30,615 bases of DNA from positions 1 through 30,615 of the IMG/VR virus record IMGVR_UViG_3300047678_000786; one strand, written 5' to 3'. Origin of the DNA: a virus. Position 1 is the stretch's first letter. Every line of letters starts with the position of its first letter. The notes under the pieces were generated by a model. It was not told where the DNA came from. It saw only the letters and a program-made list of their open reading frames with translations, and made no database searches. Positions 3,702-19,905 of this stretch are shown one piece after another. A program made the position numbers and the translations under genes.

Positions 3702-4137
3702 GGCTCGGAGGCAGGATTGCCTCAAGGGCGTTCATCAGCGTCAGTATCGGTTGCGCAGATCCACGCAACTCCTCCGCCAGCCATTCAAGCCCCGTCATCG
3801 CGTACTCGCTACCAATGGTGAGGACCTCGCCCGGATCGGCAAGCACCGACTCGCCCTTCTCTGCGAGCGCAACTAGCTCAAGGTTTGCGATCCGCCACGG
3901 GTCCCTGCTAAATATCGCTCCCGTGTTGAACTTGCTCAGCTTGTCGGGCGGTGGCATTTGCGTTCTCCGCCCGATCGCCACGCCGATCATCATCGCTGTC
4001 CACCACAGATCGATCTTCCTGGCAAACGGCTCTCTGCCACCTGCTGCACGCGAGACCAATTGCTCAGCAAATTCATCATCAAACGCACGGGGGAGGAACA
4101 GGTCCTGTAGCACATACGGAGAAACGAGATCAGCCAT
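3676..4137 (-). CDS. Phosphorothioation-operon small protein, Dnd-associated-protein-4-like (tentative)
   Basis: A 153-aa soluble protein, last gene of the minus-strand operon. The ATG at 4137 overlaps the end of the DndD-like gene by 8 bp, which supports this start over upstream in-frame codons. Seen are a helical N-terminal half, then WWTAMMIGVAIGRR, a central RDPWRIANLELVALAEKG and later EYAMTGLEWLAEEL. This order (hydrophobic helix with GRR, RD.W, ALAE, EYA..GL..L) resembles what I recall of the small Dnd-system-associated protein 4 family, but I cannot confirm it. I see no nuclease or ATPase motif. Position implies an accessory subunit of the restriction module. Its 3' end overlaps the convergent 877-aa gene. 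Confidence 0.6.
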   Translation of the reverse strand: MADLVSPYVLQDLFLPRAFDDEFAEQLVSRAAGGREPFARKIDLWWTAMMIGVAIGRRTQMPPPDKLSKFNTGAIFSRDPWRIANLELVALAEKGESVLADPGEVLTIGSEYAMTGLEWLAEELRGSAQPILTLMNALEAILPPSPKAREESP

Positions 4138-6274
4138 GTTGTTCCCCCCTCGCAACAAGAGAATGAGCGTCGTCGTATCGCCGCTCGCACACGCTACAGA
4201 ACTGCCTGACGCTGCAACCACAGACACGAACGACCGGATGATCACTGTGCCAGTTGTGGACAAGATCCACGGGATAGTGATTGTTGCACGAGAGTGTCTG
4301 CGACTTCCCAACACGCTCGTCAATGAGGGATTCGATCTCGGCAATCTCGGAGCGTGTCAGAAACAGCACGACTTGGTAGGGCGGGCTCTTACCCGCCGGA
4401 GGATGCGTAATCGCGTCCACCATGCGAGTTTTTACTCCACCCGATGTCATCCCCAGCGGCGTATCAATGATCCGAGGAGCAACCTGGCCAGACACCTCCA
4501 TGAGCGCCCAGATAAAGGACAGCGTCAAGGCTCGCTTCGATGCGCCATTCACCTCAAAGTCGGGATCAAGCTGCCCATCGCCCGCGGCTCGCACAACGAT
4601 GTCGAACTCGTCCGTCAAGGTGACGCCCTGAAAGACGGCACCGGCCTGAGCGGTATCCGTGCCGACAATGGCCATGAACATGTCGTTCATGCGAGCCGAG
4701 ACCTGTTGAACGTGGTCAACCTCCAGTACCTGCAGGGTCCGCGTGATCAGCTGCTTGAGATCGTCTGCGACCGCGCGCTTTGTGACGAGCAGCTTGCTTA
4801 CCTTGGCAGCTTTCTCTGCCGTTTCGTATTCGGCCTTTGCCAGCGAGTGGCGCTCTCGAATCGCCGCGAGCTGCGTTTCCAGCCTACCGATCGACTCGCT
4901 CGCTTCGGCGAATTTGGATTGAGCATTGCTCAGGCGATCACTCAGCCGACGAACCTGCTCATCGTCGATGCTCGCGCGTTTCTCCCTCAGCACCTCTAGG
5001 TCCGCACCGGTCTGCTTGAGTTTGTCACGATTGCCCGCGAATGCAGCGAGCTGTCGCTTTCGCTGGTTGACGAAGTCGCTCTTCCCCTCGCAAGTTGCCA
5101 GGTATTCCGCTCGCCCAAGTCTAGCCGAATGGAATGTTTGCGTTTGATGACCGCGATGCTCAGACACTTTGCGCTGTTCGGCGAGCAAGAGTTCGACGTT
5201 CCGTCGCGCTGTTGATCCGTCAGAAAGCTCGGCGTTGCAGATACACCGCTTCAGGTCGAGGCGGTCCACCAGCACTTCCAGTGACGCCCCAGGGATTACG
5301 CCCCGCCCCGCAAGCGTGTCCAGAACGTCGAAGCCCGCTAGGAGTTTTGGCCCGGCCAGCGCCCACGACGCGCCCTGGGCAGAGATGGCAGTCCTCATTT
5401 CCTCCAGCAGTGTTTGATCCCGGTCTTCGAACTCCGTCAGGCTGCTCTCCAACCGCTTTATCTGTGCATTGATGGCATCGATATCGCCGATGCTTCGGAG
5501 TTCGGCCAACTCCTTCTGCGCGCCGTCTCGGTCCACGGCGATCGCTTGTCGCCGAGAGCGCACCGTGGCCAACTCCTGATCGGTCCGAGTGATTTGCTCA
5601 CTCAACTCGGCGAGCCTTCGTTCCAATGCCTCCAGATCTGCTCCGGCAGATTGCGCGGCTTCTCGGCGGCATTTCGAGACAACGTGTTCGAGGTCCTCGC
5701 TCGCAGTCCGCATCTTGTCGAGACCGAGCAGTGCCTTGATCGCATCATGCACTCTCTCCTGACGACCGTGCATCCCTTCACCAGAAATGAACCGCTGCAC
5801 GTCGTCACCGTCGGTAAAGAACACAGATTTCAGTCGAGGTGGCAGGAACTTGGCGATGACAGTATTTGGGTCTCCAGGCACATCCTCGAATCCCGATGGT
5901 GTCCGCCGCAATAGTCGTAGTCTGTTTTGGCCTCTGTCGAACAGGTCGTTTCCCTTCGGTGTCTCCAACATTGTGCGGATGACCCGATAGGCGGTGGTAT
6001 CCTCCCCCTCGACTCGCTCAAACTCAACGATCACCTGAATCTCCACCGGAACACCGACTGGCGCTGCACTTGAAGTCAATCGCACTGTCTGGGCCCCGCT
6101 CGGCAGACCCTGTGGTCCGTAGAGACCCCAAAGGAGCGCGTAGAGGACTGAGGTCTTGCCAGAGCCGTTCTCGGCACGAATCACTGTCAATGGGCGGTCT
6201 CGCGCAGCCGAGAACTCGAGGCGAACGTCCTCGAGCAGCTTGAAGTTACGGATGTGTGCAGCGACAAGACGCAT
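4130..6274 (-). CDS. DndD-like SMC/Rad50-type ATPase of the phosphorothioation system
   Basis: A 714-aa P-loop protein. It has Walker A ENGSGKTS near residues 36-42, long coiled-coil stretches around 195-300 and 385-500, a signature-like ASKRALTLSFIW segment and Walker B RIIDTPLGM near 600. This is the SMC/RecN/Rad50 layout shared with DndD. A C-x-C pair (RCICN near 344) sits at the coiled-coil hinge in place of a normal CxxC hook. The C-terminus carries several cysteines (VCGCS, then FCSVC). The ATG at 6274 lies 8 bases after AAGGAG; an in-frame GTG at 6283 would overlap the previous stop and is the alternative. Position after the helicase suggests the ATPase of the sspFGH-type restriction module; which letter it corresponds to is not certain. 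Confidence 0.8.
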   Translation of the reverse strand: MRLVAAHIRNFKLLEDVRLEFSAARDRPLTVIRAENGSGKTSVLYALLWGLYGPQGLPSGAQTVRLTSSAAPVGVPVEIQVIVEFERVEGEDTTAYRVIRTMLETPKGNDLFDRGQNRLRLLRRTPSGFEDVPGDPNTVIAKFLPPRLKSVFFTDGDDVQRFISGEGMHGRQERVHDAIKALLGLDKMRTASEDLEHVVSKCRREAAQSAGADLEALERRLAELSEQITRTDQELATVRSRRQAIAVDRDGAQKELAELRSIGDIDAINAQIKRLESSLTEFEDRDQTLLEEMRTAISAQGASWALAGPKLLAGFDVLDTLAGRGVIPGASLEVLVDRLDLKRCICNAELSDGSTARRNVELLLAEQRKVSEHRGHQTQTFHSARLGRAEYLATCEGKSDFVNQRKRQLAAFAGNRDKLKQTGADLEVLREKRASIDDEQVRRLSDRLSNAQSKFAEASESIGRLETQLAAIRERHSLAKAEYETAEKAAKVSKLLVTKRAVADDLKQLITRTLQVLEVDHVQQVSARMNDMFMAIVGTDTAQAGAVFQGVTLTDEFDIVVRAAGDGQLDPDFEVNGASKRALTLSFIWALMEVSGQVAPRIIDTPLGMTSGGVKTRMVDAITHPPAGKSPPYQVVLFLTRSEIAEIESLIDERVGKSQTLSCNNHYPVDLVHNWHSDHPVVRVCGCSVRQFCSVCERRYDDAHSLVARGEQHG

Positions 6275-6279
6275 CGTGC

Positions 6280-6492
6280 TCACTCCTTGATCTTGGTGAT
6301 GACGACATTGCCAAAGGTCTCGACGATGGCCAACACCTCCGACCGTCTTTTCGCGTCGGAAAGCCCTTCGCTCTGTGCAGCCACGACCCTGACCAGCAGA
6401 TTGACGAGATCAGCGTGGTATTCCGGATACCGCTTCGGGCAGTTCAGGACCTGCGCTGTGGCAACTGCTGTGAACTGGCGATCAGGGTTCAT
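6280..6492 (-). CDS. Small protein between the helicase and DndD-like genes
   Basis: A 70-aa protein squeezed between two operon genes. Its ATG at 6492 overlaps the helicase TGA (ATGA) and has GGAGG 5 bases upstream, so the start is well supported. An ATG at 6504 adds four residues. The sequence is mostly helical (YPEYHADLVNLLVRVVAAQ, then a charged segment, then VLAIVETFGNVVITKIKE) with no transmembrane segment, Cys cluster or known motif. Its stop falls 5 bases before the next ATG, and its last codons form the Shine-Dalgarno of the DndD-like gene. Tight coupling argues for a stoichiometric subunit. It could be the middle, small member of an sspFGH-type trio, which is inference. Confidence 0.7.
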   Translation of the reverse strand: MNPDRQFTAVATAQVLNCPKRYPEYHADLVNLLVRVVAAQSEGLSDAKRRSEVLAIVETFGNVVITKIKE

Positions 6493-8741
6493 TGCGGCCT
6501 CCATGTCCCATTCTCAAGACGACGGGCGACATCAACTGCGCCGCCGGGATCGTACTCGTTTAGTGCGATCCGGCCGAACTCGGTGACACGACCCAGTTCG
6601 CCCCTCAGAAGCCGCCTGCCGTAAGGGCTTTGGACATCGGGGGGGACGACAACGAAATCGTGCAGGTCGGCAGCCTGCTTGCCCTCTGCTCGGCGCAAAA
6701 TGCGCCCACGCCTTTGGACCCATTCTCGCTGAACTGTGGATGATGCGAGCAAGAAGGCCACGTTTGTTTGCGGAATGTCGATCCCCTCATCCAGCACCTT
6801 CATAGCCGTCAACACTTGGTAGTCACCCCGTCCGAACCTCTCAAGCAGATCTTGCGCATCGCGAGAGGCGGTCTCCGCGTTGGTAAACTGGTGCGAGATC
6901 ACACCCAGATCAGAAAGCATAGCGGTCACAGTGTCGATCTGCCTATCCGCGTGAGGTGCCACCACCGGCTTCGCCGAGGCGTAGATCAGGGTCCGACTGA
7001 TTGTATGGGGGCCATTCTTCACCAGCAGTGAGCGGAGTGTCGGAATCTTATTGCCAGCCTGTTCGATCAGGGCGCGACGTTCTCGAAGGAGTCGCTCCAC
7101 CGTCGCATTCGCAACCAGCCGTCCGTCATCGTCGAGGGCAAAGCCAGCGGCACGAAGTTTGTCGGTGAGTTCCTGGTATCGATCCATCTCTTCGTCGGTG
7201 AATCTGACCGGATGTACCCAGTATCGATAGGGCACGAGGCAGCCGTCCTTGATGGCCTGCTCAAGTGTGTAGGTGAACACCGGCTGCGGCGCGGTGCCGC
7301 CCGCCCTGAAATAGTCGAACAACTGATCCGTTCCGTCGGGATCGTACTGGCGAATCGGGGTAGCCGACAGTCCTATCCGAAACTGAAATGCCTGCGGGGG
7401 GTCATTGACGAACGATGGCGCACCAAGATTGTGTACCTCGTCACCGATCAGCACAGTCGTACACGACATCGCTTGTCGCTCGACGAAACGCCGCAGATCT
7501 GCATCTCGCGCAAACAGTTGGTTTGACGCGATAAGAACCGCCGTCGCATTGCCGCCTTGAAGGGAAGCGGACACCTCGGCGAGAGTCTCATTCCGGTCGG
7601 CCGGGCTTGAGCCCGACAGAAGTCGGGGCTCAACACCGAAGTCGCGCACATCCTCTTGCCATTGCATGGCGAGTGGCGTCGATGGAACGAGCACGACGAG
7701 TAGCATGGGTCGGTGGTCACGTTCCTGGAGTCGTGTCACCGCGACCAGAGACGTTCGGGTCTTTCCTCCGCCAGTCGCAATGGACAGGATGCCAGAACCC
7801 CCGGCAGCCTCCAATTGAGCGATCGCCGCCGCCTGGTGCGAGTACGGCGGCCGATGCCAATCTAGCCACTGTGGAATCGACAGACGGCTCGGTGTCGCAC
7901 TGTATGCGTGCATGCCAGGTGGCAGGACAGGTTCCTTGCCTGACTCAGCATCCTTGCGCCACGCATTCCAGAAGTCGTCCACGGTCGGCGGCTCTAAGCC
8001 GACGGCTCGCTTCTGTAGTAACGCGATCGCCTGAGCAGGCTCAAGGCTCAAAGACTCAGGATGTCGGTTGTTCCACTGTCGGTCAAACTGATCGACCAAC
8101 TTTGACACGCGAATGCGCGATGACTCGCCGTCATTCCAAGGGCGGTCCACCGTCATCTGCTCGCCATTCGCAAGCAATCCCCTTGCTGTGGCATTCCCAG
8201 AGCCATGCACTGCTGCCCAGTGCGTGCCATCCGAGAACAGCCACTGCTTCTTGTGGTACATCCCCTTCCGCATCAGCACGAACCGAATGCGCAGTCTCTG
8301 CTTGGCCACCAAGTAGGCCAGGCAATCTGTGGCATGCGCCGCCAGATGTGTGCTCGGAGATTGCAAGAGCTCGACCGCAAAAGCCCGAATGGCATCCTCT
8401 GGACTGGTTATCCCACGCTCGACACCCTTCCAGTCCTCTGGAGACAACTCGGTGCTTGCCAGAAGGTGCAGGGTCGTGTCCCGGCCGAGCAACTCGGCTA
8501 GACCTGGGGCAATTTGCGCAAGGCATTGGCTGCTAAAGAAACCAGCGCAGATGCGCACCTCTGTGGCGCATCGCATCGCCGGAATCAGCACCCCTCCCAC
8601 CAGGTCGTCGAGCGGAATCTCATAGACCGGCATTGCGTGGGCGAGAGATTCTGCGAGAAGCTCAGGCATGTGCCGATCCGGTGCTTGAAGGGTCAGGTGA
8701 ACGGTTCCGTCGTGATGGAGGGAGGATGTTCGGGAAGGCAT
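6489..8741 (-). CDS. PLD-nuclease / SF2 helicase fusion of the phosphorothioation system
   Basis: About 750 aa. The N-terminal third is phospholipase-D-like: H-K-K at 163-165, Asp at 171 and GSGN at 180-183, the HxK...D...GSxN layout of PLD nucleases. The rest is a superfamily 2 helicase: motif I TGGGKT at 323-328, motif II DEVH at 434-437, motif III SATP at 459-462 and motif VI QRRGRILRR near the end. I chose the ATG at 8741, 11 bases after the sspD stop. GTG codons at 8774 and 8756 are in frame and would overlap sspD; none has a convincing Shine-Dalgarno. PLD plus DEVH helicase is a restriction-type architecture, so this is the likely DNA-cutting component that attacks unmodified phage DNA. 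Confidence 0.85.
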   Translation of the reverse strand: MPSRTSSLHHDGTVHLTLQAPDRHMPELLAESLAHAMPVYEIPLDDLVGGVLIPAMRCATEVRICAGFFSSQCLAQIAPGLAELLGRDTTLHLLASTELSPEDWKGVERGITSPEDAIRAFAVELLQSPSTHLAAHATDCLAYLVAKQRLRIRFVLMRKGMYHKKQWLFSDGTHWAAVHGSGNATARGLLANGEQMTVDRPWNDGESSRIRVSKLVDQFDRQWNNRHPESLSLEPAQAIALLQKRAVGLEPPTVDDFWNAWRKDAESGKEPVLPPGMHAYSATPSRLSIPQWLDWHRPPYSHQAAAIAQLEAAGGSGILSIATGGGKTRTSLVAVTRLQERDHRPMLLVVLVPSTPLAMQWQEDVRDFGVEPRLLSGSSPADRNETLAEVSASLQGGNATAVLIASNQLFARDADLRRFVERQAMSCTTVLIGDEVHNLGAPSFVNDPPQAFQFRIGLSATPIRQYDPDGTDQLFDYFRAGGTAPQPVFTYTLEQAIKDGCLVPYRYWVHPVRFTDEEMDRYQELTDKLRAAGFALDDDGRLVANATVERLLRERRALIEQAGNKIPTLRSLLVKNGPHTISRTLIYASAKPVVAPHADRQIDTVTAMLSDLGVISHQFTNAETASRDAQDLLERFGRGDYQVLTAMKVLDEGIDIPQTNVAFLLASSTVQREWVQRRGRILRRAEGKQAADLHDFVVVPPDVQSPYGRRLLRGELGRVTEFGRIALNEYDPGGAVDVARRLENGTWRPQ

Positions 8742-8752
8742 GTCTTGTGGAG

Positions 8753-9550
8753 TCACACATGACAGAATGAACACGGCAACGAGTCGTCGTCGTCGTCGGA
8801 ATCGTCCAACACATGTACGAGCGCCTTACTCTTCGCTCCTGGAGCTGAAATGGTCAGACGAGCCATCTTCGCCTTGATCTCCGCGACACGCGCTGGTTGT
8901 CCGAGCTCCGCGAGCGATTCTCGTTCGCTCCAGGTGTACCTCTGGCCGGTTTCCGCGTCAATCTTCTCGTACTTCTTGGAGTCTTCGAACAGTTCCGGAT
9001 GGGTCTCCTTGAGCCCGACCCATTCGTGCTTGCGTTGGTAGAAGCAGAAATAGCACCCCGACCGGGTCCGCCATGAGTAGTAGTTCGGGAAACCGATGCC
9101 ACTCTCGTCAAGGATGCGATGTACGTCGGCAAGCGTGTACCCGGCCTCAATGAACGGGTAGACCGGCTGGATGTTCGGCTTGCTTGGGCGATACCCCCCG
9201 CGGTTCTCATCGGCACGGATGCCGATATACATCTTCACCGGATCGTCACCAATGTACTTCTCGAAGGGTTTGATCTTGAGCACCTTCGTGCACCATCGCA
9301 TCCGAGACGAGGGCAGATAGCCCCCATAAATCTGAAGCCAATGATCAAAACCACGGTCTGCCTTCAGACGCACGATCGGCTTCCCCAAGAACGCTTCGAT
9401 CTTTTCAAGGTACTCGTAGGTCTCGGGCAGTTCCTTGTCGGTGTCAGAAAATACATACTCAACCTCTGGCAGACGACCCTTCAGGTAAATCGCCAGCGCC
9501 GTGCTGTCTTTGCCACCGGAGAGAGAGACGATATGACGGAGCGGCTTCAT
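8753..9550 (-). CDS. sspD: SspD-like PAPS-reductase-family sulfur transfer protein
   Basis: A 265-aa member of the PP-loop ATP-pyrophosphatase/PAPS reductase family used by DndC and SspD to activate DNA for backbone sulfur incorporation. The PP-loop SGGKDST is at 11-17. Cys87 (RWCTK), Cys166 and Cys169 (CYFC) are likely iron-sulfur ligands as in DndC. The start overlaps the sspC stop (ATGA) with GGAGGT just upstream. An oddity is the C-terminal tail: an Asp-rich run followed by a terminal C-S-F-C-H-V, adding two more cysteines outside the family core. No cysteine desulfurase gene is near, so sulfur presumably comes from a housekeeping IscS/SufS-type enzyme. Confidence 0.88.
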   Translation of the reverse strand: MKPLRHIVSLSGGKDSTALAIYLKGRLPEVEYVFSDTDKELPETYEYLEKIEAFLGKPIVRLKADRGFDHWLQIYGGYLPSSRMRWCTKVLKIKPFEKYIGDDPVKMYIGIRADENRGGYRPSKPNIQPVYPFIEAGYTLADVHRILDESGIGFPNYYSWRTRSGCYFCFYQRKHEWVGLKETHPELFEDSKKYEKIDAETGQRYTWSERESLAELGQPARVAEIKAKMARLTISAPGAKSKALVHVLDDSDDDDDSLPCSFCHV

Positions 9551-12500
9551 CGAATACCTCCAGCAACGCCATTCACTCCGGCATCGGAACCGATGACCAG
9601 ACCAACTAGCTGCGCCAACGCCGCAAGGACGACGCCCTGGGAGAGTCCCTTCTCCGACACAAGGAGTTGGGAGCGTAGGGCACGCGCCAGCTCGGACACA
9701 TCCGCCGACTGGGCGTCGGAAACATGGAGCACGACTTCGTGATCCTTCATGGCCGACCCGGCAACTGCCAGACGGAACGTCATGCTGCCCGGTCCCAAGT
9801 CGTGTGCAGAAGCGTGCTCGCGTGCAACAACTTCGAGGGATCGGAGGCGCCGAACGCGCTGAGCGAGCGCCACCTCAAAGCGAGCCCGATCTTCGTCTCG
9901 CCACGCCGGAGGGGGCTTGGCAACCAAAATCGCCGCGAGAGACTCCACCCACTGACGATCATCCGTGCTTGCCTCCAGTATTCGCTCTACGAAGCTCCGC
10001 ATTTCTGGGTCCACAGCCACTGACTCGACGGCGCGTGCTCGCGACACCATCGAGCGCCGCAAATCTGGCAGGGCTGACGGAGCCGCGAATGCTGTAGATA
10101 GCGCCCCTTGAACAGATGACAGCAGACCGTCGTAGGCTCGCTGCAGCTCGCTCAGCGACTGCTGAAGGACTGTCAGGTAGCGAGACACGTCGCATTCTCG
10201 GCCACGACTCTTGGAATCAAACGGTGGAACCCCGCACGCCTGTGGCAACTCTACAAAGAGCAGCTGGTCCGGCTCCGTTGCGGTCGAGAGGACGGTGCGG
10301 ATCGAAACAGCTTCAGACGAAAGCGAGCGGGTTGTCTGGGTGTACTGATCGAGCTTGCGATAGAACCTGAGCATTGGCTTCACTACGTCAAGCACGTCAT
10401 CACGTCCTGCGCGCCCCGCTTCCCTGGGCGTGCCGAGCATGGCCGCGAGCTGCTGAAACACCGTCGTGCGAACGCCAGATAGTCGCCATCGCCGAACAGC
10501 AAAGAACTCTGGCGTCTTCATCAACCGCTCGAAGGATTCAATCGACAGTTGTGGAAGGAATGCGCCGTCTTCGTACAGAGCGATCTCGGACTCACAGGCC
10601 TGGAGCACCGCGCACAGTATGACCGGCAGCACGCCATCCCGGAGGCCATATGGGGGCGACCTCAGCACGTCAAAGAAGGCTGCGACGGATTTCCTCTCGC
10701 TCTCCGCAGTGCTGAAGAAGTCGTGAATCCCGCGGAGTAACGCGTCGGCATTGTTCTTGGCCCGACGTGGATCTGCGGAGAACCGACACACGCCAGATCC
10801 TGTCGTATGAAGCCCCAACTCACGCAACACGGAGAGATAAACGCTCCGCTCGGGAGGGTTGCCCTTTATGCCAAGCTCGGCGACACCGGGGTGTTCGATC
10901 ATCGCTTCGATGAGATTCCGTCGCGCGGCAGCCGCCGAAGACGACAGATCCATTCGATTGATGATCTCGTTACGGATGACGGGGGCTGCCTCGAACACCT
11001 TGTCACACACCACAGACAGCAGCTCGTTCAGCTGTCGCGAGTCATGCACTTTGACCATATGACCGCCCTGATACCACCGCGTCATGCCGTCCTTCGTGCT
11101 TCCGAACAGTGTCGCGGAAGACTCGCTTGCGAGCCGCCGACGCACTTCTGACTCCCGCGCATCCAACTCCCGCCGTGCGGTGGAATCTCCGGCAAGCTCT
11201 GGCGATTCTTTGCGTACCGCCTCGATTGCGGCAAGTTCACGAGCCAGCGACGCGAGCTCTCGTGAGTTGGCGGGCACAGCCAAAAGGAGTTGGGGATTAC
11301 CGGCAGTCTCGTCATTCGCCTTCAACGCCGTCGGTCCGCTGGCACCCTCACCAAGCAGCACCAATATCCGCCCATCGCCGCGTGACACTTGGGCCATCGC
11401 GGGTAGTACATGTTGTGCATTCACATAGTCAATTGGAAACACCCGCAGCGTACCGGTCTCGAATGAGTGCCGCCTAGCGATTACCGGGCGCGGCCTGAAG
11501 AACCGCGTAAGCGCGTCTGCAACATCGAGCGAGGTGGGCAGCGCGGCACGAGCGGCACTAAGCTTGGCTTCGATGTCCACGTCGCTGCCTTCCCAGAGCG
11601 CGAGCGTGTCGTTGAACTTCCGCAGTACGACAACAGACCGTGCTCGCAGATCGGCGATGGCCGTCGCAGTGGAGTTTGCGTCGAGTGTGGGGGCAACCGC
11701 GATTTCCACATTCGCCTTGGTGGCTGCCACATCGTGCCACCTACCGATGATGCCCAGCATCGCAATTGTCCGAAACACTGCGACGGCTTCCGGTCCGCAA
11801 TCGACCAACCGGCGATCGAGGTCGATCGCTTCCGCCCACCGCTTCCCATCTCGATTGCTCAGCAGGTTGTCGCCCAATGTAGACGTCATGTACTCGAACA
11901 GGTTGGCCAGCGTGTACATGTCGGAATCACGCGCGGTACAACGAGCGGCAAAGTCCCGGAGTCCGAACGGTTCCCTCGACTGAACGAACGAAAACGCTGA
12001 GCGCTCGTTCTGACCATACCTCTTGAACACGGAGCCCAGCACTACTGCCGTAGCCGGATGCAGTGGCCAGCATCTCTTGAGTAGCTCGGTCGCTTCCGTC
12101 TTGTTGAGACCTCGCGGAAGCGCACCGACTCTCTGCATCGCCTGAAACGTTTGCTTCCACGCGAGCTCTCCAGGACCGGACGGGCCGTCACTCTCAACAG
12201 CACGGGCGAGCAGACGCAGCATCTGATCGGCGGGCTCATCGAACAGAATGTCCTCGAAGCGGCCGCGGATCTTCTCCCACTCTTGGCGTTCCCGTGCAGG
12301 CAGCCCTTGTGCGTAGGCAGAGAAGTCCTGGTGAAGAACTCCAAGCAGGAGCATCGGTGCGGATGTCCGACTTACCGTTTCGGCGAGCTCTTGCAGAGCG
12401 TACACGTCGGAACGGTCGGGGTTCTTGGCCGCGAACTCGAGCAGCTTGCCGAGTTCATCGATCACGACGAGTGTCCCGACAATGCCGTCCTCGTGAGCCG

Positions 12501-13032
12501 AGACACACTCATGCAGTTTGAGCAGGCCTTCGACCGGGTTGCCGAACTTGCCCGAGCCACTGTCTGACATCCATTGCGAACGAAGCCTGCGTGCTGCGGT
12601 GGACTTGCACGAGTCCAAGGCCTCGATCGAGGCTCGTCGGATGGAGTCGCGGATTGACTCAGACGATCCGGTAATCAGTACCGGCAAGAGACTGCCTCGG
12701 CTCGTGATTCGCCGCAACCGGTCGTGCAGTCCCACATCCGCTACTTTGAGCGCCGCCGCCATCGGCGCGTGCAATCGATGCCGACCACCAGCCAGTAAGG
12801 CCGCAGCAAACAAGACGAAAGATGACTTTCCAGTGCCATACGGGCCTGTAATTGTCCATGCGCGGCCAGATGCGGGGTCACTGAGCCCCCTGATGATTCT
12901 GCCGAGAGTCTGACAAGCGCAAGCAGATGCGATGTAGTCGATCGATGCTTGTTTGCGAGCACTGTCGGCGACAACGTTGGTCGAGCGTCGGAATGTGCTT
13001 CGCCGACGGCGGATGGGCTCAGCGAGCGGCAT
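9547..13032 (-). CDS. sspC: SspC-like large P-loop ATPase
   Basis: An 1161-aa protein. Walker A GPYGTGKS lies at 63-70 and Walker B VVIDELGK at 189-196, within a AAA/STAND-like ATPase domain. The remaining roughly 850 residues are mainly helical with no recognised catalytic motif. In Ssp systems SspC is the ATPase that cooperates with the DUF4007 protein and SspD for single-strand phosphorothioate modification. The ATG at 13032 has GGAGGT 6 bases upstream and overlaps the sspB end by 14 bp; the 3' end overlaps sspD by 4 bp. The BrxC/DUF6079-type large ATPases of other defence systems are the main alternative family, but the DUF4007 and PAPS-reductase neighbours decide for SspC. Confidence 0.82.
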   Translation of the reverse strand: MPLAEPIRRRRSTFRRSTNVVADSARKQASIDYIASACACQTLGRIIRGLSDPASGRAWTITGPYGTGKSSFVLFAAALLAGGRHRLHAPMAAALKVADVGLHDRLRRITSRGSLLPVLITGSSESIRDSIRRASIEALDSCKSTAARRLRSQWMSDSGSGKFGNPVEGLLKLHECVSAHEDGIVGTLVVIDELGKLLEFAAKNPDRSDVYALQELAETVSRTSAPMLLLGVLHQDFSAYAQGLPARERQEWEKIRGRFEDILFDEPADQMLRLLARAVESDGPSGPGELAWKQTFQAMQRVGALPRGLNKTEATELLKRCWPLHPATAVVLGSVFKRYGQNERSAFSFVQSREPFGLRDFAARCTARDSDMYTLANLFEYMTSTLGDNLLSNRDGKRWAEAIDLDRRLVDCGPEAVAVFRTIAMLGIIGRWHDVAATKANVEIAVAPTLDANSTATAIADLRARSVVVLRKFNDTLALWEGSDVDIEAKLSAARAALPTSLDVADALTRFFRPRPVIARRHSFETGTLRVFPIDYVNAQHVLPAMAQVSRGDGRILVLLGEGASGPTALKANDETAGNPQLLLAVPANSRELASLARELAAIEAVRKESPELAGDSTARRELDARESEVRRRLASESSATLFGSTKDGMTRWYQGGHMVKVHDSRQLNELLSVVCDKVFEAAPVIRNEIINRMDLSSSAAAARRNLIEAMIEHPGVAELGIKGNPPERSVYLSVLRELGLHTTGSGVCRFSADPRRAKNNADALLRGIHDFFSTAESERKSVAAFFDVLRSPPYGLRDGVLPVILCAVLQACESEIALYEDGAFLPQLSIESFERLMKTPEFFAVRRWRLSGVRTTVFQQLAAMLGTPREAGRAGRDDVLDVVKPMLRFYRKLDQYTQTTRSLSSEAVSIRTVLSTATEPDQLLFVELPQACGVPPFDSKSRGRECDVSRYLTVLQQSLSELQRAYDGLLSSVQGALSTAFAAPSALPDLRRSMVSRARAVESVAVDPEMRSFVERILEASTDDRQWVESLAAILVAKPPPAWRDEDRARFEVALAQRVRRLRSLEVVAREHASAHDLGPGSMTFRLAVAGSAMKDHEVVLHVSDAQSADVSELARALRSQLLVSEKGLSQGVVLAALAQLVGLVIGSDAGVNGVAGGIR

Positions 13033-13978
13033 GTGGAGACCTCCGCTTGAAGTGCTTCTTCAAGAGTGCGAGGGGAGTGGGGAGTGAATCGGCGAGAAGC
13101 ACTTGGCGAAGTCCTGCGGTCCCGCCGAACCGCATCGCACCCGATGTGAAATCATCGAGCTCGTCTAGAAGGTCTGTGAGCGCGTTCTCGGAAAGCCGAA
13201 ATATCTGGCCCGGGCTGCCGGGGCCGTAGGCAACTTGTTCGAACGACCGAGTCCTCGCGCCAACATCTACCCGCCCACAGTAGTCGGCCAGGCAGGAAGC
13301 AAAGACGGCGAGCGGGAGGTTGCGGCGCGGTCCTCTAGGGAAGGAAAAAGCGCCAGCTTCGCCCACTCGATGGACCAGGTCTAGGTCAGCGAGGGGGCAG
13401 TCATGAACGTCCTCCCCTTGGATTTTCTTGTCAGCACTGCTGCCAACATAGCACCGAATACAGCAGTCCACATCGCGTTCGAGGGTCTCCTCGGCCACCG
13501 CCTCGCCAGCGAAACGAGCCTCGTACTGCCGCAACTCACGAGTGAGGGAGCGAGTGGTGAACTCGGAGGATCGAACCTCGTTGAACAAGACATACCAGGA
13601 CGTCGGCCCGGCAACACGAGAGGCAAGCCCCCAATGGATCAACCACAGCGTCGCGGGGTCTTCAACGTATGGGTCGGCTCCGTCTTCGCCGAATAGAAAG
13701 TCGCCGAGTGGCGTGGGTGTCAACGAGGGCGTTCGTGTGCGCACGTCCGATCGCACGGGGCCGATCATCTGTGCCTCCGTACACCAGAAACGAATTGAAC
13801 GAACCATGTTCTTGCCGACGCCTAGCGAGACCATCGCTTCCGGATCGCTAAAGCCCATCGGCTTCGCCTTGCAGAAGCGCACGCCCTTGGCGAGCCAACT
13901 GAATCGCAGCGGAAAGCTCTCGTGACCCGAGAATCGGATTCGAACGGTTTGATCCTGGATGATGGTCGTTTCGGGCAT
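13019..13978 (-). CDS. sspB: SspB-like DUF4007 protein (phosphorothioation nickase component)
   Basis: A 319-aa protein. The N-terminus is diagnostic of DUF4007: RFSGHESFPLRFSWLAKG, then DPEAMVSLGVGKNMVRSIRFW at about 46-66. DUF4007 proteins occur as SspB, reported to nick DNA so that sulfur can be introduced on one strand. The distal part reads as helical with HTH-like segments. It is the first gene of the operon. The ATG at 13978 follows a TATAGT box by 6 bases with no room for a Shine-Dalgarno, so translation is probably leaderless. The start codon itself lies inside a CCTGGATG-type site. Family call is strong; biochemical activity is taken from the described SspB proteins. Confidence 0.87.
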   Translation of the reverse strand: MPETTIIQDQTVRIRFSGHESFPLRFSWLAKGVRFCKAKPMGFSDPEAMVSLGVGKNMVRSIRFWCTEAQMIGPVRSDVRTRTPSLTPTPLGDFLFGEDGADPYVEDPATLWLIHWGLASRVAGPTSWYVLFNEVRSSEFTTRSLTRELRQYEARFAGEAVAEETLERDVDCCIRCYVGSSADKKIQGEDVHDCPLADLDLVHRVGEAGAFSFPRGPRRNLPLAVFASCLADYCGRVDVGARTRSFEQVAYGPGSPGQIFRLSENALTDLLDELDDFTSGAMRFGGTAGLRQVLLADSLPTPLALLKKHFKRRSPHAAR

Positions 13979-14029
13979 CCAGGTACTATAGCGGAAGCGC
14001 CTGGATGACGCCGATGCCGAGCATCCAGT
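13954..14029. promoter_or_regulatory. Four-site operator array: two 30-bp palindromes over the sspB promoter
   Basis: CCTGGATG occurs at 13954-13961 and 14000-14007; its reverse complement CATCCAGG occurs at 13976-13983, and with one mismatch (CATCCAGT) at 14022-14029. The sites alternate forward-reverse-forward-reverse. Each pair has exactly 14 bases between its arms, giving two 30-bp palindromes 16 bp apart with a 46-bp period. The -10 box lies between the palindromes and the sspB ATG is inside the first one. A dimeric regulator binding both palindromes would block or remodel the promoter. The regulator is unknown. Confidence 0.75.
13985..13990 (-). promoter_or_regulatory. -10 box of the phosphorothioation operon (leaderless type)
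   Basis: On the minus strand TATAGT is followed by 6 bases and then the sspB ATG, placing the transcription start at or near the start codon. No recognisable -35 element is present 16-18 bases upstream; one of the CCTGGATG sites covers part of that spacer. This suggests dependence on, or repression by, a bound factor. Confidence 0.55.
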
Positions 14030-14258
14030 CCGAGGTCGGTTGGGTGTCCTTGTGACAGGCTATCCCAAATCTCGTTGGCGTGCTCGCACCAAGGCGAGAC
14101 GCTCGAGCATTGGGCGTTCGCGGTTCCACCGCCGGGCACACGCCACATCGTAGGGATTCAGCCTACGACTCGTGTGCGGGGGCTCGATCGGGGATGAGGG
14201 GTCAGGCCGAAAGGCCTGCCCCCGCGCGTTGGCGCGGGGGCAGACGAGCGGTTCAACA
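14030..14258. other. Intergenic region between the operon promoter and the SMP-like gene
   Basis: I see no gene here. It holds a 7-bp stem hairpin (14148-14154 with 14162-14168, loop GATTCAG) and, further right, the terminator hairpins of the SMP-like gene. The rest is unassigned GC-rich sequence that may include further upstream control sites for sspB. Confidence 0.5.
14203..14243 (-). terminator. Double-hairpin terminator region after the SMP-like gene
   Basis: Two perfect hairpins share three bases: CTGCCCCCGCGC at 14216-14227 with its complement at 14232-14243 around loop GTTG (12-bp stem), and CAGGCC at 14203-14208 with GGCCTG at 14213-14218 around a GAAA loop. They begin 15 bases past the stop of the minus-strand gene. 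There is no T-run, so termination would be atypical or the structures may only stabilise the 3' end. Confidence 0.55.
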
Positions 14259-14453
14259 TCACTTCTTGCCGCCGCCACCTCCCTTGCCGCTGTTGTGCGC
14301 CGCGGCGCTCTGGGCCTTGGCAGCGAAGCTGTCCTTGGCGACCTGCCCGCCGCTTGCCTTGGCCGTCGCGCTCTGGATGCGTGCGGCGGCGTCTGGGGTC
14401 ATCGGCGTGTGGCTATGCGAACCCTGATTGCTCTGAGACGTGTTCTCCGACAT
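14259..14453 (-). CDS. Seed-maturation-protein (SMP/LEA-like) domain small protein
   Basis: A 64-aa hydrophilic protein. Residues 18-55 hold TPDAAARIQSATAK and DSFAAKAQSAAAHN, the pattern of the SMP domain (plant LEA family, also in bacteria as short proteins), with a Ser/Gln/His-rich lead and a Gly-Lys tail. GGAG 7 bases before the ATG supports the start. SMP proteins are usually linked to desiccation or stress tolerance; the bacterial role is poorly known. It sits alone on the minus strand between two defence units with its own hairpin terminator, so it is a separate transcription unit. The inverted repeat TGTGAA/TTCACA (14454-14459, 14475-14480) just upstream could be an operator. Confidence 0.65.
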   Translation of the reverse strand: MSENTSQSNQGSHSHTPMTPDAAARIQSATAKASGGQVAKDSFAAKAQSAAAHNSGKGGGGGKK

Positions 14454-14612
14454 TGTGAAACTCCAATCCCGCAGTTCACAGCCCGTCCAAAGCCCTTCGC
14501 AACGCCCGCTGAGCCGGTCGCGTGGGGCTGTTAACCAGAGAACGGCCGCTCGGAACCCCCTCGGCGGCCTAGATTCGACGGTTTGAACCCGTTACGATCG
14601 GGGAGTTACCGA

Positions 14613-14645
14613 CGCCCTCGCGGAAACGCGGGGGCGTTTTGGTTT
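14613..14645 (+). terminator. Orphan intrinsic terminator
   Basis: A 10-bp stem (14613-14622 with 14627-14636, one G-T wobble) around a GAAA loop, followed by TTTTGGTTT. This is a well-formed rho-independent terminator on the plus strand, but no plus-strand gene ends near it. It may terminate a short untranslated RNA starting somewhere in 14460-14600, or be a leftover of a lost gene. Confidence 0.65.
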
Positions 14646-15038
14646 ACAGGTCGGGCGATCTGGCCGCCCTCGGGCCGTGGCCGCGACGATGCGCGGAAAG
14701 TCCCGTCAGGACGGGGGGTTTCCAACGCTCCGGCGGGACCTGGGCCCGACCCGCCGCGCTCTCGGTCTTGAAACCGAATCTCGGGGTCCGACGGCAACCC
14801 CTACGGTTGCTCACGCCCCACCGGCGGCAACCCTCTCGGACTCTCGCGCTCTCTGGTTGACGGGTGGCCTGAGCTTAACAGCAGGGTTGCTCTCGGGGGC
14901 CTTCACCAAGTGACCCAAGGAATCAGTTAAATTGGACGGGTCTACGCCGGGCGGCCTTGGATCTCTCCCGCGAGCAGGGGCAGATTCCAAGGCCCCCGGA
15001 AATGCGATAGGGTCAAGTCCCCGTTACACTTATCCACA
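14641..15038. other. Gene-free structured region before the helicase-nuclease gene
   Basis: About 400 bases with no convincing gene. Several inverted repeats are visible: GGAAA...TTTCC enclosing CCCGTC/GACGGG (around 14695-14723), GCAACC/GGTTGC (around 14794-14810), and a 12-bp stem with one bulge at 14953-14964 and 14982-14994. A TACACT box at 15025-15030 could be the -10 of the helicase-nuclease gene. It could hold a structured RNA, but it matches no RNA family I recognise. Confidence 0.4.
14884..14896 (+). repeat. Left copy of 13-bp direct repeat flanking the helicase-nuclease gene
   Basis: GGGTTGCTCTCGG, identical to 19906-19918. The similarity extends leftward imperfectly (TGAGC and ACA blocks before the core in both copies). 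The two copies bracket the helicase-nuclease gene and may mark insertion of that unit. Confidence 0.5.
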
Positions 15039-15041
15039 TTG

Positions 15042-18000
15042 GTGCCTGACGCTGCCGCCTTGTGGGATCAGCATGAGACACCCGGCATTTGGCGTTGTCG
15101 CAGCGGATTTCTCGTGTCCGATCAACCTCCCCAAGCGAATCCCGAATCCGCCAAACGCGATCCCGAGCGGAGGCGTGCGCTGGCGATCTTCCGCTACCTG
15201 CGGGACCTCGCGCACCTGCGGACGGCCGTTGTCCGCGATCTACGTTCCTATGAGCGTGTCTTTTGGCTTGATGCTGTTCGCGGGAAGCCCGGATGCACCG
15301 CTCGGTATTTCCGCCCCGAGCCCGGTGTCAATTGGCTCGGTACCGAAGCGACGGACGAGGACGTTTGGCTCACTGTGCGCAAGTTGCCCGAACCGGCACT
15401 TCCCCCGCTTCCGGCGAGCATCAAAGCATGGGTTGACTCTGACTCGGGGAAGGACCCTGACTCGCCACCCCGCTTGTTGGATCGAATCGAACGCCCACGC
15501 CCGGAGAACAAGCCCGGCCGGGCCGACCCATCCGCGTCGATTGGTGCGAACGGTCAATCTTCGCCCGCTGGCGGCAGCGCGACCCGATCTCATTCCGGCG
15601 ACCAATACGAACTTCTTGAGGACCATCCCGAGGTTGCCGTTGCGCTCAACGACTACATGCAGGCGAGTTGGAAGCCGTGGGCGGAAAAATACGCCGCCTG
15701 GGTGGTGTTCCAAGAGAAGGTGTACGCGCCGCTGTTCGTCATTCACAGCGATCTCAAGCGCCTCGGTGAAGAGTTTGAGTTGGTGCTCGGGCTGGGCTGC
15801 CTGACATGGAAGACGCCTAGCGGTCAGCAAGTCCGCCGACACCTCATCGCCGCGCAAGTCGCTCTGGAGTTTGACCCCGCTGGTGGCGTGTTCACACTCC
15901 GCCCCGGTTCTGACGGCGCGAAGCTCGCCCTCGAAATCGACATGCTCGATCCCAGCGAGCAGCCAAGTGTCCCGCAGAGGGAGGTTGTGGCCGCTGACTT
16001 GGCGAAGACCGATGATGATCCCTGGGAGTTCGAGGCCATCGACCGCGCCCTTCGAGGGTTCGCACAAGCGATCAAGGAGGATGGAACCTACGACCCGGAC
16101 GCATATGAGGCCAAAGGGATGGAGCCCGTGCCGCAGGCCGCTTTCGCGCCAGCACTTCTCCTTCGCAGGCGCACGTCGCGGGGACTTCTCCTCGCCTTCG
16201 AGGCCATCATCGAGCAACTTCAGAAGGGTGCGGAAATCCCGCCCGGCGTGAAACGGCTGACGCGCGCCGCGACTGGCGAATCACACAGCGAGGCTCCTCC
16301 GAGTCCCTCTACCTTCGCGGATACACCGACGAACACGCGCGTCTATTTCCCCCTGCCGGCGAATGAGGACCAACGGCAGATTGTCGAACGGCTCAACAGC
16401 AAGCACGGCGTCCTCGTGCAGGGACCGCCCGGCACTGGTAAGTCGCACACGATCGCCAACCTCATTTGCCACCTTCTCGCCACTGGGCAAAGGGTGCTGA
16501 TTACCGCGCAGACGCCCCGCGCGCTGCAAGTGCTTCGGGACAAGTTGCCGGTGGAAATCCGCCCGCTATGCCTTAGCGTTCTGGGCAACGACAAGGCGGC
16601 GCAGGACAACGTAGAGGACAGCGTACGAAATATCACGGACAAGGCGGACTCCTGGAACAGCGGCCCGGCGACGGAAGAAATCCGCAAGGCCGAATCGGAG
16701 TTGGATAGGCTCACCCAGCGAGAGACCACGTTAGAGCGCGAGGTTCGGACGTTCCGCGAAGCCGAGGTTCACGAACACACGCTGGCGGATGGCGCCTACG
16801 CGGGCACGGCACAGGTGATCGCACGACGGGTCAGGCAAGACGCACAAAGATTCGCGTGGTTTGCCGACGGTGCCGACCCGGACAAACCCGCACCGATCAA
16901 TGCGGACGATCTGACAGCGTATCGAGACGGGATGATCCGCGTCAGTCCGCAAAGGGCCGCCGAAGTCGAACAGCGCCGTCCGGCACGCGGAAGCGAGATT
17001 CCAGCCGACGACACGCTGACGAGGCTCATACGCGCCTCACACACGCTGCATAGCCGCATCCGCCCGATCGCGGATGGCGAGGTGCATCTGGGCACACTGC
17101 CGCTCGATGAACTGCGCGGAGTGAGTACCGCCCTGCGTGCCCTCCAAGCGGCAGTCCAGCAGGTTCCGACGGCGGCCACCCCGTGGGCCGCAGTCGCGTT
17201 GTCTGACGTCTTGCGAGGGGCGGGCGCGGGGTGGGACTTGTTGTTGTCCCAAACGAGCGCGGCGGTGGCCGCCCACACCGACCTCGCGGCCAAACTCGAC
17301 AAGGCCGACATTCGACTCCCAGCCGGTCGGCGCTCGGACATGCTGCTGGCGGATGTGGCGGACCTCCTCGGACATTTCCAGCGCGGCGGGGGCTTGGGCT
17401 TCTTCGTATTCCGCGCGAAGGTGGTCAGACGCACGATCTACCTGTGCCGCGAAGCCACGATCGACGGTCGCCCGTGCGATCATGCGGCAGCGCTGACCAC
17501 GGCCAAGGAACACCTCGAATGTTCGGCGGCGGTAGGCAAGACTTGGACGCTTTGGGACGGGAAGGCATTCCCATCGACCAAGACGAATGGACAGCAGGTC
17601 GGTGAACTACGGGAACTGTGCGCCATCCTGACGCGTGTCCTTGGCGTTCGACCAATCGCGGACGCCGCATCCGCAGCACTGACCCGGCTCCACCTCGCGG
17701 AGGTGCCGCCCCTTCACGACCTTCGAGCCGTCGATGAACTCTCGACGCGCTGCGAGCGGGTCATCGTGCGGCGGGAGTACGACGTGGTAACCTCGCGGCT
17801 CGATGCGCGGGTCCACGCCCTCCGCGCCGTCGCCACGTCGCCGAATGCGCATCCGGTATGCGCCCGCTTGGCCAACGCCATAGAGCAGCGGGACGAACGC
17901 GGGGTGACGGCGGCGCTCGCCGAAGTCGCCGGACTCGAAGCCGACGCCGCGCGTCTCGCGGAATGGGCAAGCCTCGACGAACGAATCAGCACGGTTCTTC

Positions 18001-19775
18001 CGAAGTTGGCCCGGTCCATTGCGGAAAACCATGCGGACCCCGCGTGGAAGGTGCGTATCGCCGACTGGAGCGCCGCCTGGCGTTGGGCGCAGGCCGACGC
18101 ATGGCTCACCAAGTACACCGATCCGCGCAAAGCGGCGGCGGTGGAACTGGAACTCCGGCAGGCAAAAGACCGGATCAAGGCGTGCGTGGTCCGAGCATCG
18201 GCAGAGCGAGCATGGCATTCATGCCTCTCGTCGATGAGCCCTGCGCACCAGCAACATCTCAATGCTTGGCGGCAAGCGATCAAGAAGATCGGCAAGGGGA
18301 CGGGCAAGCACGCGGGCCACTGGCGGCGCGTTGCGCAAGGAGAGTTGGAGCAGTGCCGCGACGCCATCCCGGCGTGGGTCATGCCTCTCTACCGGGTGTT
18401 CGAGAGCGTGAAGCCGGCACCGGGCATCTTTGATGTTGTGATCGTGGACGAAGCCTCGCAGTGTGGCCCAGAATCGCTAATCCTGTTCTACCTGGCGAAG
18501 AAGGTCATTGTCGTGGGCGACGACAAGCAGATTAGCCCGTCGAACATCGGCATCGACAAGGACCAAGCCAAGAGTCTCCTTCGCCAGCATTTGGAGGGGA
18601 TCGAACTTGCCGACACCTTCGATGTGGACAGCAGCCTGTTCGATCACGGCCAAGTCCGATTGGGCAAACGGATCACGCTCCATGAGCATTTCCGGTGCAT
18701 GCCCGAGATCATCCGTTTCAGCAACGACCTCTGCTACAAGGGTGCACTGATCCCGCTCCGACAATATCCGCCCAAGAGGCTCGCCCCATATGTCGCGCGA
18801 CGGATTCCCGACGGGAAGCGCGAAGGCGGGCCACAGAGCGCGAAGAACCAGGCGGAGGCCGAAGCCATCGTCGACGCGATTGCGGCGTGCTGTGCTGACC
18901 CGATGTACAAGGACAAGACAATGGGCGTGATCTCGCTCTTGGGCGAGCATCAAGCCAAGTTGATCGAGCGGCTGTTACTCAAGCGAATCGGGGCAGAGGA
19001 GATCGAACGGCGACGGATGGTGTGCGGTGATGCCTACTCGTTCCAGGGCGACGAGCGCCACATCATCTTCCTCAGCCTCGTTGTCGCGGTCAAAGATGAT
19101 GAGTCTCGCGGCTTCGCTTCTCTGACGAAGCTCTCGGACATGCAGCGTTTCAACGTCGCCGCGAGTCGGGCGCAAGACCAACTCTGGCTGTTCCACTCGA
19201 TCATGCCGGAGGACGTTGGCAACCACGAGTGCATGCGCCATCGGCTCTTGACCCACTTCTACGACCCGGCACGGCACGCGGCCCGAAGCATTGGGGTGGA
19301 TGTTGCTGATCTGCGCCAACAGGCGGCTAATCCCGACCGCCCGGAAACGGCTCCGGACCCCTTCGACAGTTGGTTTGAGGTTGACGTTTACCTTCGTATC
19401 GCTGATCGCGGGTTCCGGGTGCTCCCGCAGTACCGCGCGGGTCGTCACAGCATCGACTTGGTGATCGAAGGCAAGTCCCGGCTTGCGATCGAGTGCGACG
19501 GCGACCATTGGCACGGACCGGACAAGTTCGATGAGGACATGGCGCGGCAGCGTCAACTCGAACGGGCGCAGTGGCGATTCTTGCGGGTGCGAGGCAGCGC
19601 GTTCTATCGCGATCCCGATGCCGCGTTGGTTCCGTTGTGGGCGCGCCTGTCAGAACTCGGCATTGTTCCGATGCCTGCAACCGACGGAAGCGGAAGTGGC
19701 GACGGGTACATTCCGCACATTCCTGAGCGGGAAGCGCCAGAGCCAACGCAGGAACAGGCGAGCGCTGCCGGTTAG
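15042..19775 (+). CDS. SF1 helicase with C-terminal Vsr/DUF559-like nuclease, antiphage candidate
   Basis: About 1577 aa. The SF1 helicase core has motif I GPPGTGKS near 461-468, motif II VDEASQCGP near 1135-1143, motif III VVGDDKQISPS near 1155 and late motifs DAYSFQGDERHIIFLS and LTKLSDMQRFNVAASRAQ. A 600-residue insert separates motifs I and II. Residues about 1445-1540 form a PD-(D/E)XK nuclease of the Vsr/DUF559 group (SIDLVIEGKSRLAIECDGD, then HWHGPDKF). The same helicase-Vsr order occurs in single-gene antiphage proteins found in defence islands. The first in-frame ATG is about 200 codons in, inside what looks like real protein, so I use the GTG at 15042 (TTG 15039 is equivalent); no Shine-Dalgarno is seen and a TACACT box 11 bases upstream suggests a leaderless message. 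Confidence 0.85.
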   Translation: MPDAAALWDQHETPGIWRCRSGFLVSDQPPQANPESAKRDPERRRALAIFRYLRDLAHLRTAVVRDLRSYERVFWLDAVRGKPGCTARYFRPEPGVNWLGTEATDEDVWLTVRKLPEPALPPLPASIKAWVDSDSGKDPDSPPRLLDRIERPRPENKPGRADPSASIGANGQSSPAGGSATRSHSGDQYELLEDHPEVAVALNDYMQASWKPWAEKYAAWVVFQEKVYAPLFVIHSDLKRLGEEFELVLGLGCLTWKTPSGQQVRRHLIAAQVALEFDPAGGVFTLRPGSDGAKLALEIDMLDPSEQPSVPQREVVAADLAKTDDDPWEFEAIDRALRGFAQAIKEDGTYDPDAYEAKGMEPVPQAAFAPALLLRRRTSRGLLLAFEAIIEQLQKGAEIPPGVKRLTRAATGESHSEAPPSPSTFADTPTNTRVYFPLPANEDQRQIVERLNSKHGVLVQGPPGTGKSHTIANLICHLLATGQRVLITAQTPRALQVLRDKLPVEIRPLCLSVLGNDKAAQDNVEDSVRNITDKADSWNSGPATEEIRKAESELDRLTQRETTLEREVRTFREAEVHEHTLADGAYAGTAQVIARRVRQDAQRFAWFADGADPDKPAPINADDLTAYRDGMIRVSPQRAAEVEQRRPARGSEIPADDTLTRLIRASHTLHSRIRPIADGEVHLGTLPLDELRGVSTALRALQAAVQQVPTAATPWAAVALSDVLRGAGAGWDLLLSQTSAAVAAHTDLAAKLDKADIRLPAGRRSDMLLADVADLLGHFQRGGGLGFFVFRAKVVRRTIYLCREATIDGRPCDHAAALTTAKEHLECSAAVGKTWTLWDGKAFPSTKTNGQQVGELRELCAILTRVLGVRPIADAASAALTRLHLAEVPPLHDLRAVDELSTRCERVIVRREYDVVTSRLDARVHALRAVATSPNAHPVCARLANAIEQRDERGVTAALAEVAGLEADAARLAEWASLDERISTVLPKLARSIAENHADPAWKVRIADWSAAWRWAQADAWLTKYTDPRKAAAVELELRQAKDRIKACVVRASAERAWHSCLSSMSPAHQQHLNAWRQAIKKIGKGTGKHAGHWRRVAQGELEQCRDAIPAWVMPLYRVFESVKPAPGIFDVVIVDEASQCGPESLILFYLAKKVIVVGDDKQISPSNIGIDKDQAKSLLRQHLEGIELADTFDVDSSLFDHGQVRLGKRITLHEHFRCMPEIIRFSNDLCYKGALIPLRQYPPKRLAPYVARRIPDGKREGGPQSAKNQAEAEAIVDAIAACCADPMYKDKTMGVISLLGEHQAKLIERLLLKRIGAEEIERRRMVCGDAYSFQGDERHIIFLSLVVAVKDDESRGFASLTKLSDMQRFNVAASRAQDQLWLFHSIMPEDVGNHECMRHRLLTHFYDPARHAARSIGVDVADLRQQAANPDRPETAPDPFDSWFEVDVYLRIADRGFRVLPQYRAGRHSIDLVIEGKSRLAIECDGDHWHGPDKFDEDMARQRQLERAQWRFLRVRGSAFYRDPDAALVPLWARLSELGIVPMPATDGSGSGDGYIPHIPEREAPEPTQEQASAAG

Positions 19776-19903
19776 GCCGCCACCGTCGCCGCCGCGACCT
19801 CCGACCACGGCCCCTTTTCCCCGCGCGTTTTCACCTACCGCAGGGCGTAGTACGCCGTCTTGCCCGCTTCGGCGCTGGGGACGTCGGTTTGCCGGGTGAG
19901 CAC
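19772..19903 (-). pseudogene. C-terminal gene fragment with nonsense codon
   Basis: Reading minus from about 19903 gives TDVPSAEAGKTAYYALR, then TAG (19835-19837), then VKTRGEKGPWSEVAAATVAA and TAA at 19772-19774. The motif AYYALRWVNTRGEKGPWSE is a C-terminal signature I recall from a bacterial hypothetical-protein family; here the W codon TGG has become TAG. The N-terminal part is missing. The fragment abuts and overlaps the helicase-nuclease stop codon, so the insertion junction of that gene probably lies here. Confidence 0.5.
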
Positions 19904-19905
19904 AT

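What the first reader, a model, noticed from the sequence alone, without database searches (positions are those of the whole stretch)
13954..14029. Two identical-geometry 30-bp palindromes over the phosphorothioation operon promoter
Four CCTGGATG-type sites in strict alternating orientation, both pairs with a 14-base spacer, a 46-bp unit period, one mismatch in 32 positions, bracketing a -10 box and covering the start codon. Chance is very unlikely. DndB is a known repressor of dnd operons, so a dedicated regulator is plausible; candidates here are the 90-aa HTH protein, the 877-aa fusion or SspB itself.
Basis: partly seen in the sequence, partly recalled or inferred. Interest (0 to 1): 0.75.

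Follow-up and report, generated by a model that had tools for sequence, protein, structure and literature searches.

The report
Conserved operator of a DNA-sulfur defence operon
Two matching DNA palindromes straddle the promoter and start codon of a bacterial anti-phage operon that puts sulfur into DNA, and the same half-site, which contains the very three bases (CCA) that such systems are known to modify, sits in the same place in front of related operons across several phyla, including E. coli, so the operon probably switches itself off through its own DNA-binding protein, SspB.

Summary
CTGGATG-N14-CATCCAG occurs exactly twice in the window (13955-13982, 14001-14028; 0.01 expected by chance), 46 bp apart, flanking a TATAGT -10 box. 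One copy contains the sspB start codon.

It is real biology. The same 28-bp element covers the sspB start codon in two distant planctomycete genomes; in both (one a 7.4-Mb genome) that is the only exact copy. A sister form with the same half-site, CTGG-N9-CCAG, is in the sspB promoter of 41 of 125 sampled loci, all in one SspB clade (41 of its 43 members; 0.4 loci expected in shuffles; about 80-fold enriched over flanking DNA). Later-fetched loci fit: two E. coli sspBCD loci, A. baumannii and two alphaproteobacterial plasmids have it. N9 and N20 differ by 11 bp, one helical turn. The site nearest the gene starts 2-5 nt after a -10-like hexamer in 24 of 44 loci.

Best reading: an autoregulatory operator bound by SspB, the FokI-like triple-winged-helix recognition subunit. 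The invariant core TGG/CCA equals the published Ssp modification motif CpsCA. Binding, repression and sulfur-sensing are inferred. SspB and SspC trees are congruent, so SspC is not excluded.

The parts
13954..13983 (.). promoter-proximal operator CCTGGATG-N14-CATCCAGG, containing the sspB ATG and its first codons
   Evidence: same element at the sspB start in L012/G001 and L124/G360
14000..14029 (.). promoter-distal operator, same geometry, one outer mismatch (minus strand ACTGGATG-N14-CATCCAGG)
13985..13990 (-). -10 hexamer TATAGT between the two operators, ending 6 nt before the ATG; leaderless start inferred
   Evidence: offset of 2-5 nt to the proximal operator recurs in 24 of 44 loci
13019..13978 (-). 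sspB (DUF4007), first gene; triple-wHTH nickase/recognition subunit, proposed autoregulator
   Evidence: Pfam DUF4007 1.5e-79; PADLOC SspB 4.6e-85; AlphaFold model matches 6lb9/6juf SspB, TM 0.83-0.85
9547..13032 (-). sspC (AAA+ ATPase)
   Evidence: PADLOC SspC 6e-295
8753..9550 (-). sspD (PAPS reductase-like)
   Evidence: PADLOC SspD 4.6e-109
6489..8774 (-). PbeA-like helicase, same operon
   Evidence: PADLOC PbeA 6.7e-173
4130..6283 (-). PbeC/DndD-like ATPase, end of operon
   Evidence: PADLOC PbeC 1.1e-56

Best explanation
The two palindromes are a tandem operator controlling the sspBCD(-pbeA-pbeC) operon. A two-fold symmetric DNA-binding protein, most likely SspB itself, binds inverted TGG...CCA half-sites over the -10/start region and just upstream, blocks RNA polymerase, and so keeps the phosphorothioation nickase low. 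When SspB is scarce, as on entry into a new host, the operon is open; when it accumulates, it shuts the promoter. Because the half-site contains CCA, the trinucleotide that characterised Ssp systems modify, the modification state of the operator may also feed back on binding. Shown here: the element, its conservation, its position relative to -10 boxes, its association with particular SspB/SspC clades rather than host phylum, and the absence of another identified shared regulator gene. Inferred: SspB as binder, repression rather than activation, leaderless start, feedback by sulfur.
For: Exact core twice in the window against 0.01 expected. In 125 sspB loci, CTGG-N9-CCAG is in 41 promoters (shuffle mean 0.4, max 4), 2.02/kb in promoters against 0.026/kb elsewhere. 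N9 carriers fall in one SspB clade (41 of 43 rows, SH-aLRT 99); the three N20 carriers form another (94; 99/92 in the smaller careful tree). It follows the operon, not the host: genomes of planctomycete phylum (G144, G255, G397) and a Dehalococcoidia MAG (L084) with N9-clade SspB have N9 operators. Loci fetched later fit: E. coli L167 (1 copy) and L168 (2), A. baumannii L161 (2), L163, L164; L162 has one mismatch; L165 and L166, whose SspB is nearest to operator-free loci, have none. Families shared by 33 N9 loci: SspB 33, SspC 33, SspD 30, SspA 19; clusters in 28 and 21 loci were not identified (their strand suggests antisense frames). Only outer bases vary (TTGG-N9-CCAA in Vibrio L160, L149, L146); TGG/CCA stays. 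Known motif: CpsCA (PMC9646914). SspB is a FokI-like triple wHTH recognition subunit (PMC10853773).
Against: No binding or expression data. SspB and SspC trees give the same operator clades, so phylogeny cannot separate them. Two-thirds of the sampled SspB loci show no CTGG/CCAG element, so autoregulation of this form is not universal. A conserved 4-mer contains CCA or TGG by chance about 6% of the time (own estimate), so the motif match is suggestive only. The window's own modification motif is unknown. N20 against N9 spacing needs a different dimer arrangement or two dimers. The window lacks a -35-like hexamer, so the promoter is inferred.
Confidence: 0.62

Rival explanations
1. The operator is real but is bound by another operon product (SspC or SspD, or an SspBC complex) rather than SspB alone.
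For: SspC is present in 33/33 and SspD in 30/33 N9 loci; the SspC tree gives the same operator clades.
Against: In the literature read, SspB is the subunit assigned to DNA recognition; SspC is described as a ring-forming ATPase and SspD as a sulfur-transfer enzyme (PMC10853773, PMC12707154).
Confidence: 0.12
2. A separate regulator, encoded by the host or by a gene that differs from locus to locus, binds the palindromes.
For: Some loci have a small HTH gene next to sspB: 'DNA-binding protein' in A. baumannii L161, HTH_17-like genes before sspB in L036, L063, L113, which lack the operator; a WYL gene in E. coli L168.
Against: No such family was identified as common to N9 loci; operator type goes with SspB/SspC clade across phyla; the window's 877-aa candidate is absent from G360 and G001.
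Confidence: 0.17
3. The palindromes act at the RNA level, as hairpins controlling translation of sspB.
For: The arms can pair and one covers the start codon; the 76-nt stretch folds strongly in silico.
Against: The distal copy lies upstream of the -10 and would not be transcribed; with a start near the ATG the proximal left arm is mostly untranscribed; in many N9 loci the distal copy lies well upstream of the proximal site's -10-like hexamer.
Confidence: 0.03
4. Chance or a mobile-element trace with no regulatory role.
For: CCTGGATG-N14-CATCCAGG with one mismatch occurs at a background of about one per 20 Mb in Planctomycetota.
Against: Conserved position at sspB in three planctomycete-type loci and 41 N9 loci, 0.4 expected.
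Confidence: 0.01

Closest known systems
DndB operator of the dndBCDE promoter, Salmonella enterica Cerro 87 (PMC4507180)
   Same: Two spaced palindromes over the promoter of a phosphorothioation operon, bound by a product of the operon's first gene, which represses it
   Different: TACG-N10-CGTA, unrelated to the GAAC/GTTC modification motif; DndB is a ParB-superfamily protein; no DndB hit and no exact TACG-N10-CGTA here
SspBCD systems of E. coli and Vibrio (SspABCD-SspE, SspBCD-SspFGH; PMC8092258, PMC9646914)
   Same: Homologous SspB, SspC and SspD; two E. coli sspBCD loci carry CTGG-N9-CCAG
   Different: The window has N20 instead of N9, PbeA/PbeC-like genes instead of SspE or SspFGH, and no sspA was recognised in it; no operator is described in the papers read
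FokI DNA-binding domain (recognition GGATG; own knowledge)
   Same: PMC10853773 relates the SspB triple wHTH to it; the N20 half-site CTGGATG contains GGATG
   Different: Most N9 half-sites lack ATG, so the GGATG match may be coincidence; Foldseek hits were SspB itself and weak wHTH matches
C-proteins and autoregulatory methyltransferases of restriction-modification systems (own knowledge)
   Same: Self-limiting control of a modification enzyme at establishment in a new host
   Different: Separate HTH regulators or methyltransferases; here the candidate is the nickase/recognition subunit of a sulfur system

Membership tests
SspBCD phosphorothioation operon | Adjacent sspB (DUF4007), sspC ATPase, sspD PAPS reductase | tested here: met
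SspBCD phosphorothioation operon | CpsCA modification of host DNA | not testable with these tools
   needs LC-MS or PT sequencing
SspBCD phosphorothioation operon | SspA or another cysteine desulfurase | tested here: inconclusive
   no cysteine desulfurase among the window proteins scanned; PMC8092258 says an IscS elsewhere can substitute
sspB-promoter CTGG/CCAG operator family (described here) | Inverted CTGG..CCAG half-sites at the sspB promoter | tested here: met
sspB-promoter CTGG/CCAG operator family (described here) | N9 spacing of the main clade | tested here: not met
   window spacing is N20; no CTGG-N9-CCAG in the window; 20-9 = 11 bp
sspB-promoter CTGG/CCAG operator family (described here) | Bound by SspB | not testable with these tools
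   gel shift or footprint needed
DndB/dnd operator | dndB gene in the operon | tested here: not met
   no DndB hit among the window proteins scanned
DndB/dnd operator | TACG-N10-CGTA palindromes | tested here: not met
   no exact match; one-mismatch matches lie outside the promoter

The most novel reading that the evidence does not exclude
The phosphorothioation machinery reads its own modification motif as its operator: SspB binds inverted, unmodified CCA sites at its promoter, and sulfur modification of those CCA sites changes binding, so the operon measures the cell's modification level directly.
Probability: 0.22. Interest if true: 0.85.

Novelty: new variant of a known kind. Interest (0 to 1): 0.64.

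Why it matters
How Ssp phosphorothioation operons are regulated was not described in any paper found here, although control of the related Dnd system by DndB is known. A conserved operator with a defined half-site, present in E. coli sspBCD, makes the question testable with existing laboratory constructs. If SspB is the binder, one protein would serve as target-recognition nickase and repressor, and the shared CCA core would link operator recognition to the modification motif. That could bear on the open question of why only about 14% of CCA sites are modified (PMC9646914).

Tried and rejected
(1) SspB as a single-protein query found no relatives in genome contigs; an alignment was needed. (2) Host-factor regulation was tested through mismatched host and SspB clade and disfavoured. 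(3) The 877-aa protein as regulator: absent from G360 and G001; its G397 homologue (~31% identity) sits with PbeC/PbeA genes. (4) The HTH_17 protein: no BLAST hit around the G360 operon, but HTH_17-like genes precede sspB in three operator-free loci. (5) SspC tree as discriminator: congruent with SspB, so uninformative. (6) Other common palindromes in operator-free clades: none. (7) RNA hairpin: disfavoured by position. (8) E. coli sspB by DNA similarity with L007 or Vibrio sspB: no match; found through sspD. (9) The initial SspB paper (10.1038/s41564-020-0700-6) is not held.

Full report
Observation. On the minus strand the sspB upstream region reads ACTGGATG-N14-CATCCAGG, then CGCTTCCGCTATAGTA, then CCTGGATG-N14-CATCCAGG, the ATG of sspB being part of the second CCTGGATG. 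Both palindromes are at the stated coordinates; the exact 28-bp core occurs only there, with 0.01 expected. No CTGG-N9-CCAG and no exact TACG-N10-CGTA occurs in the window. The operon is sspB-sspC-sspD-pbeA-like-pbeC-like. The SspB model (mean pLDDT 90) matches the solved SspB structures 6lb9/6juf.

Conservation of the exact element. In two genomes, G001 (L012, titled Planctomycetota; SspB 43% identical) and G360 (L124, found in a search of the phylum of G002; 43%), CTGGATG-N14-CATCCAG covers the sspB ATG in the same register: CTGG followed by ATG, with CATCCAG at codons 6-8. N-terminal peptides otherwise differ (MPETTIIQ, MNAMSPIQ, MESNTSIQ), which points to constraint on the DNA. A -10 hexamer ends 6-7 nt before the ATG in each (TATAGT, TATACT, TACACT). 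The exact element occurs once in each of these genomes, 7.4 and 2.7 Mb, at that place. The one-mismatch 30-mer is otherwise rare background.

The wider family. Among 125 sspB loci from genomes, plasmids and viral contigs, CTGG-N9-CCAG is the outstanding inverted word: 35 of 105 in the first scan, where the best unrelated word had 8; 41 of 125 in the full set against a shuffle mean of 0.4. Many loci have two copies, with either 12-18 bp between them (L056, L047, L055, L069, L081, L107; the window has 18) or mostly 36-42 bp. The proximal copy starts 2-5 nt after a TA...T hexamer in 24 of 44 loci; the background of 0.017 per position predicts about 7%. Half-site identity is strict: among exact N9 carriers and three outliers only outer bases vary at one mismatch, and Vibrio-type and L146 loci have TTGG-N9-CCAA, so TGG/CCA is the fixed core. 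N9 to N20 is +11 bp, which keeps the half-sites in similar rotational phase; that is an inference, not a measurement.

What the element goes with. On the SspB tree the N9 loci fill one clade (41 of 43 rows) and the N20 loci another (careful tree of a subset). Genomes of planctomycete phylum and a Dehalococcoidia MAG that hold N9-clade SspB have N9 operators, whereas planctomycetes with other SspB types do not. Loci fetched later matched: E. coli L167 and L168, A. baumannii L161, L163 and L164 positive, L162 one mismatch, L165 and L166 negative. These were fetched to look at promoters of known relatives and are few. Shared families in 33 N9 loci are SspB, SspC and SspD, with SspA in about 19; clusters found in 28 and 21 loci were not identified and are probably antisense reading frames of these genes. 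The SspC tree is congruent, so this does not choose between SspB and SspC.

Mechanism. Position over the -10/start region argues for occlusion of RNA polymerase. SspB is the best candidate because it is the first gene, is described as a triple-wHTH recognition subunit related to the FokI DNA-binding domain (PMC10853773; PMC12839542), and the operator core equals the CpsCA motif modified by characterised Ssp systems (PMC9646914). Repression, SspB binding and modification sensing remain untested. The closest precedent is DndB on the Salmonella dndBCDE promoter (PMC4507180).

Literature. No paper found in the searchable library describes a regulator or operator of sspBCD. The library omits most subscription journals, including the original SspB structure paper, so absence there is not proof of novelty.

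Noticed in passing
window 1068-3701 (+): 877-aa protein with an RNA polymerase alpha-CTD-like domain and a sigma-70 region 4. A 748-aa homologue of its central and C-terminal part (~31% identity) lies beside PbeC/PbeA-like genes and sspBCD in G397 (L181), suggesting a conserved Pbe-module component rather than the sspB regulator.
   Followed up: partly
L036, L063, L113, just upstream of sspB: HTH_17-like genes directly precede sspB in three loci that lack the CTGG/CCAG operator: a possible alternative regulator.
   Followed up: no
L155:7414-11723 (G360): The G360 sspBCD operon is followed by a gene pair, one with two HATPase domains and one without a Pfam hit, where the window has PbeA/PbeC; neither matched PADLOC: possibly an undescribed Ssp effector module.
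   Followed up: partly
window 15039-19775 (+) and 21039-22940 (+): 1578-aa helicase with an MTES_1575 nuclease domain, and a ParB-N6/N4 methyltransferase fusion: further candidate defence genes next to the operon.
   Followed up: no
window 14259-14453 (-): Unlisted 64-aa ORF (MSENTSQSNQ...GGGGGKK) upstream of the sspB promoter, resembling small SMP-type proteins (own recollection; no search run).
   Followed up: no
window 7682-21032 against IMGVR_UViG_3300047994_000589: A second viral-collection contig is 100% identical over at least 13.35 kb but only 92% over 194 bases near the window's right end, suggesting a strain variant or rearrangement.
   Followed up: partly
L160 (Vibrio scophthalmi plasmid): SspC appears split into two annotated genes between sspB and sspD.
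   Followed up: no
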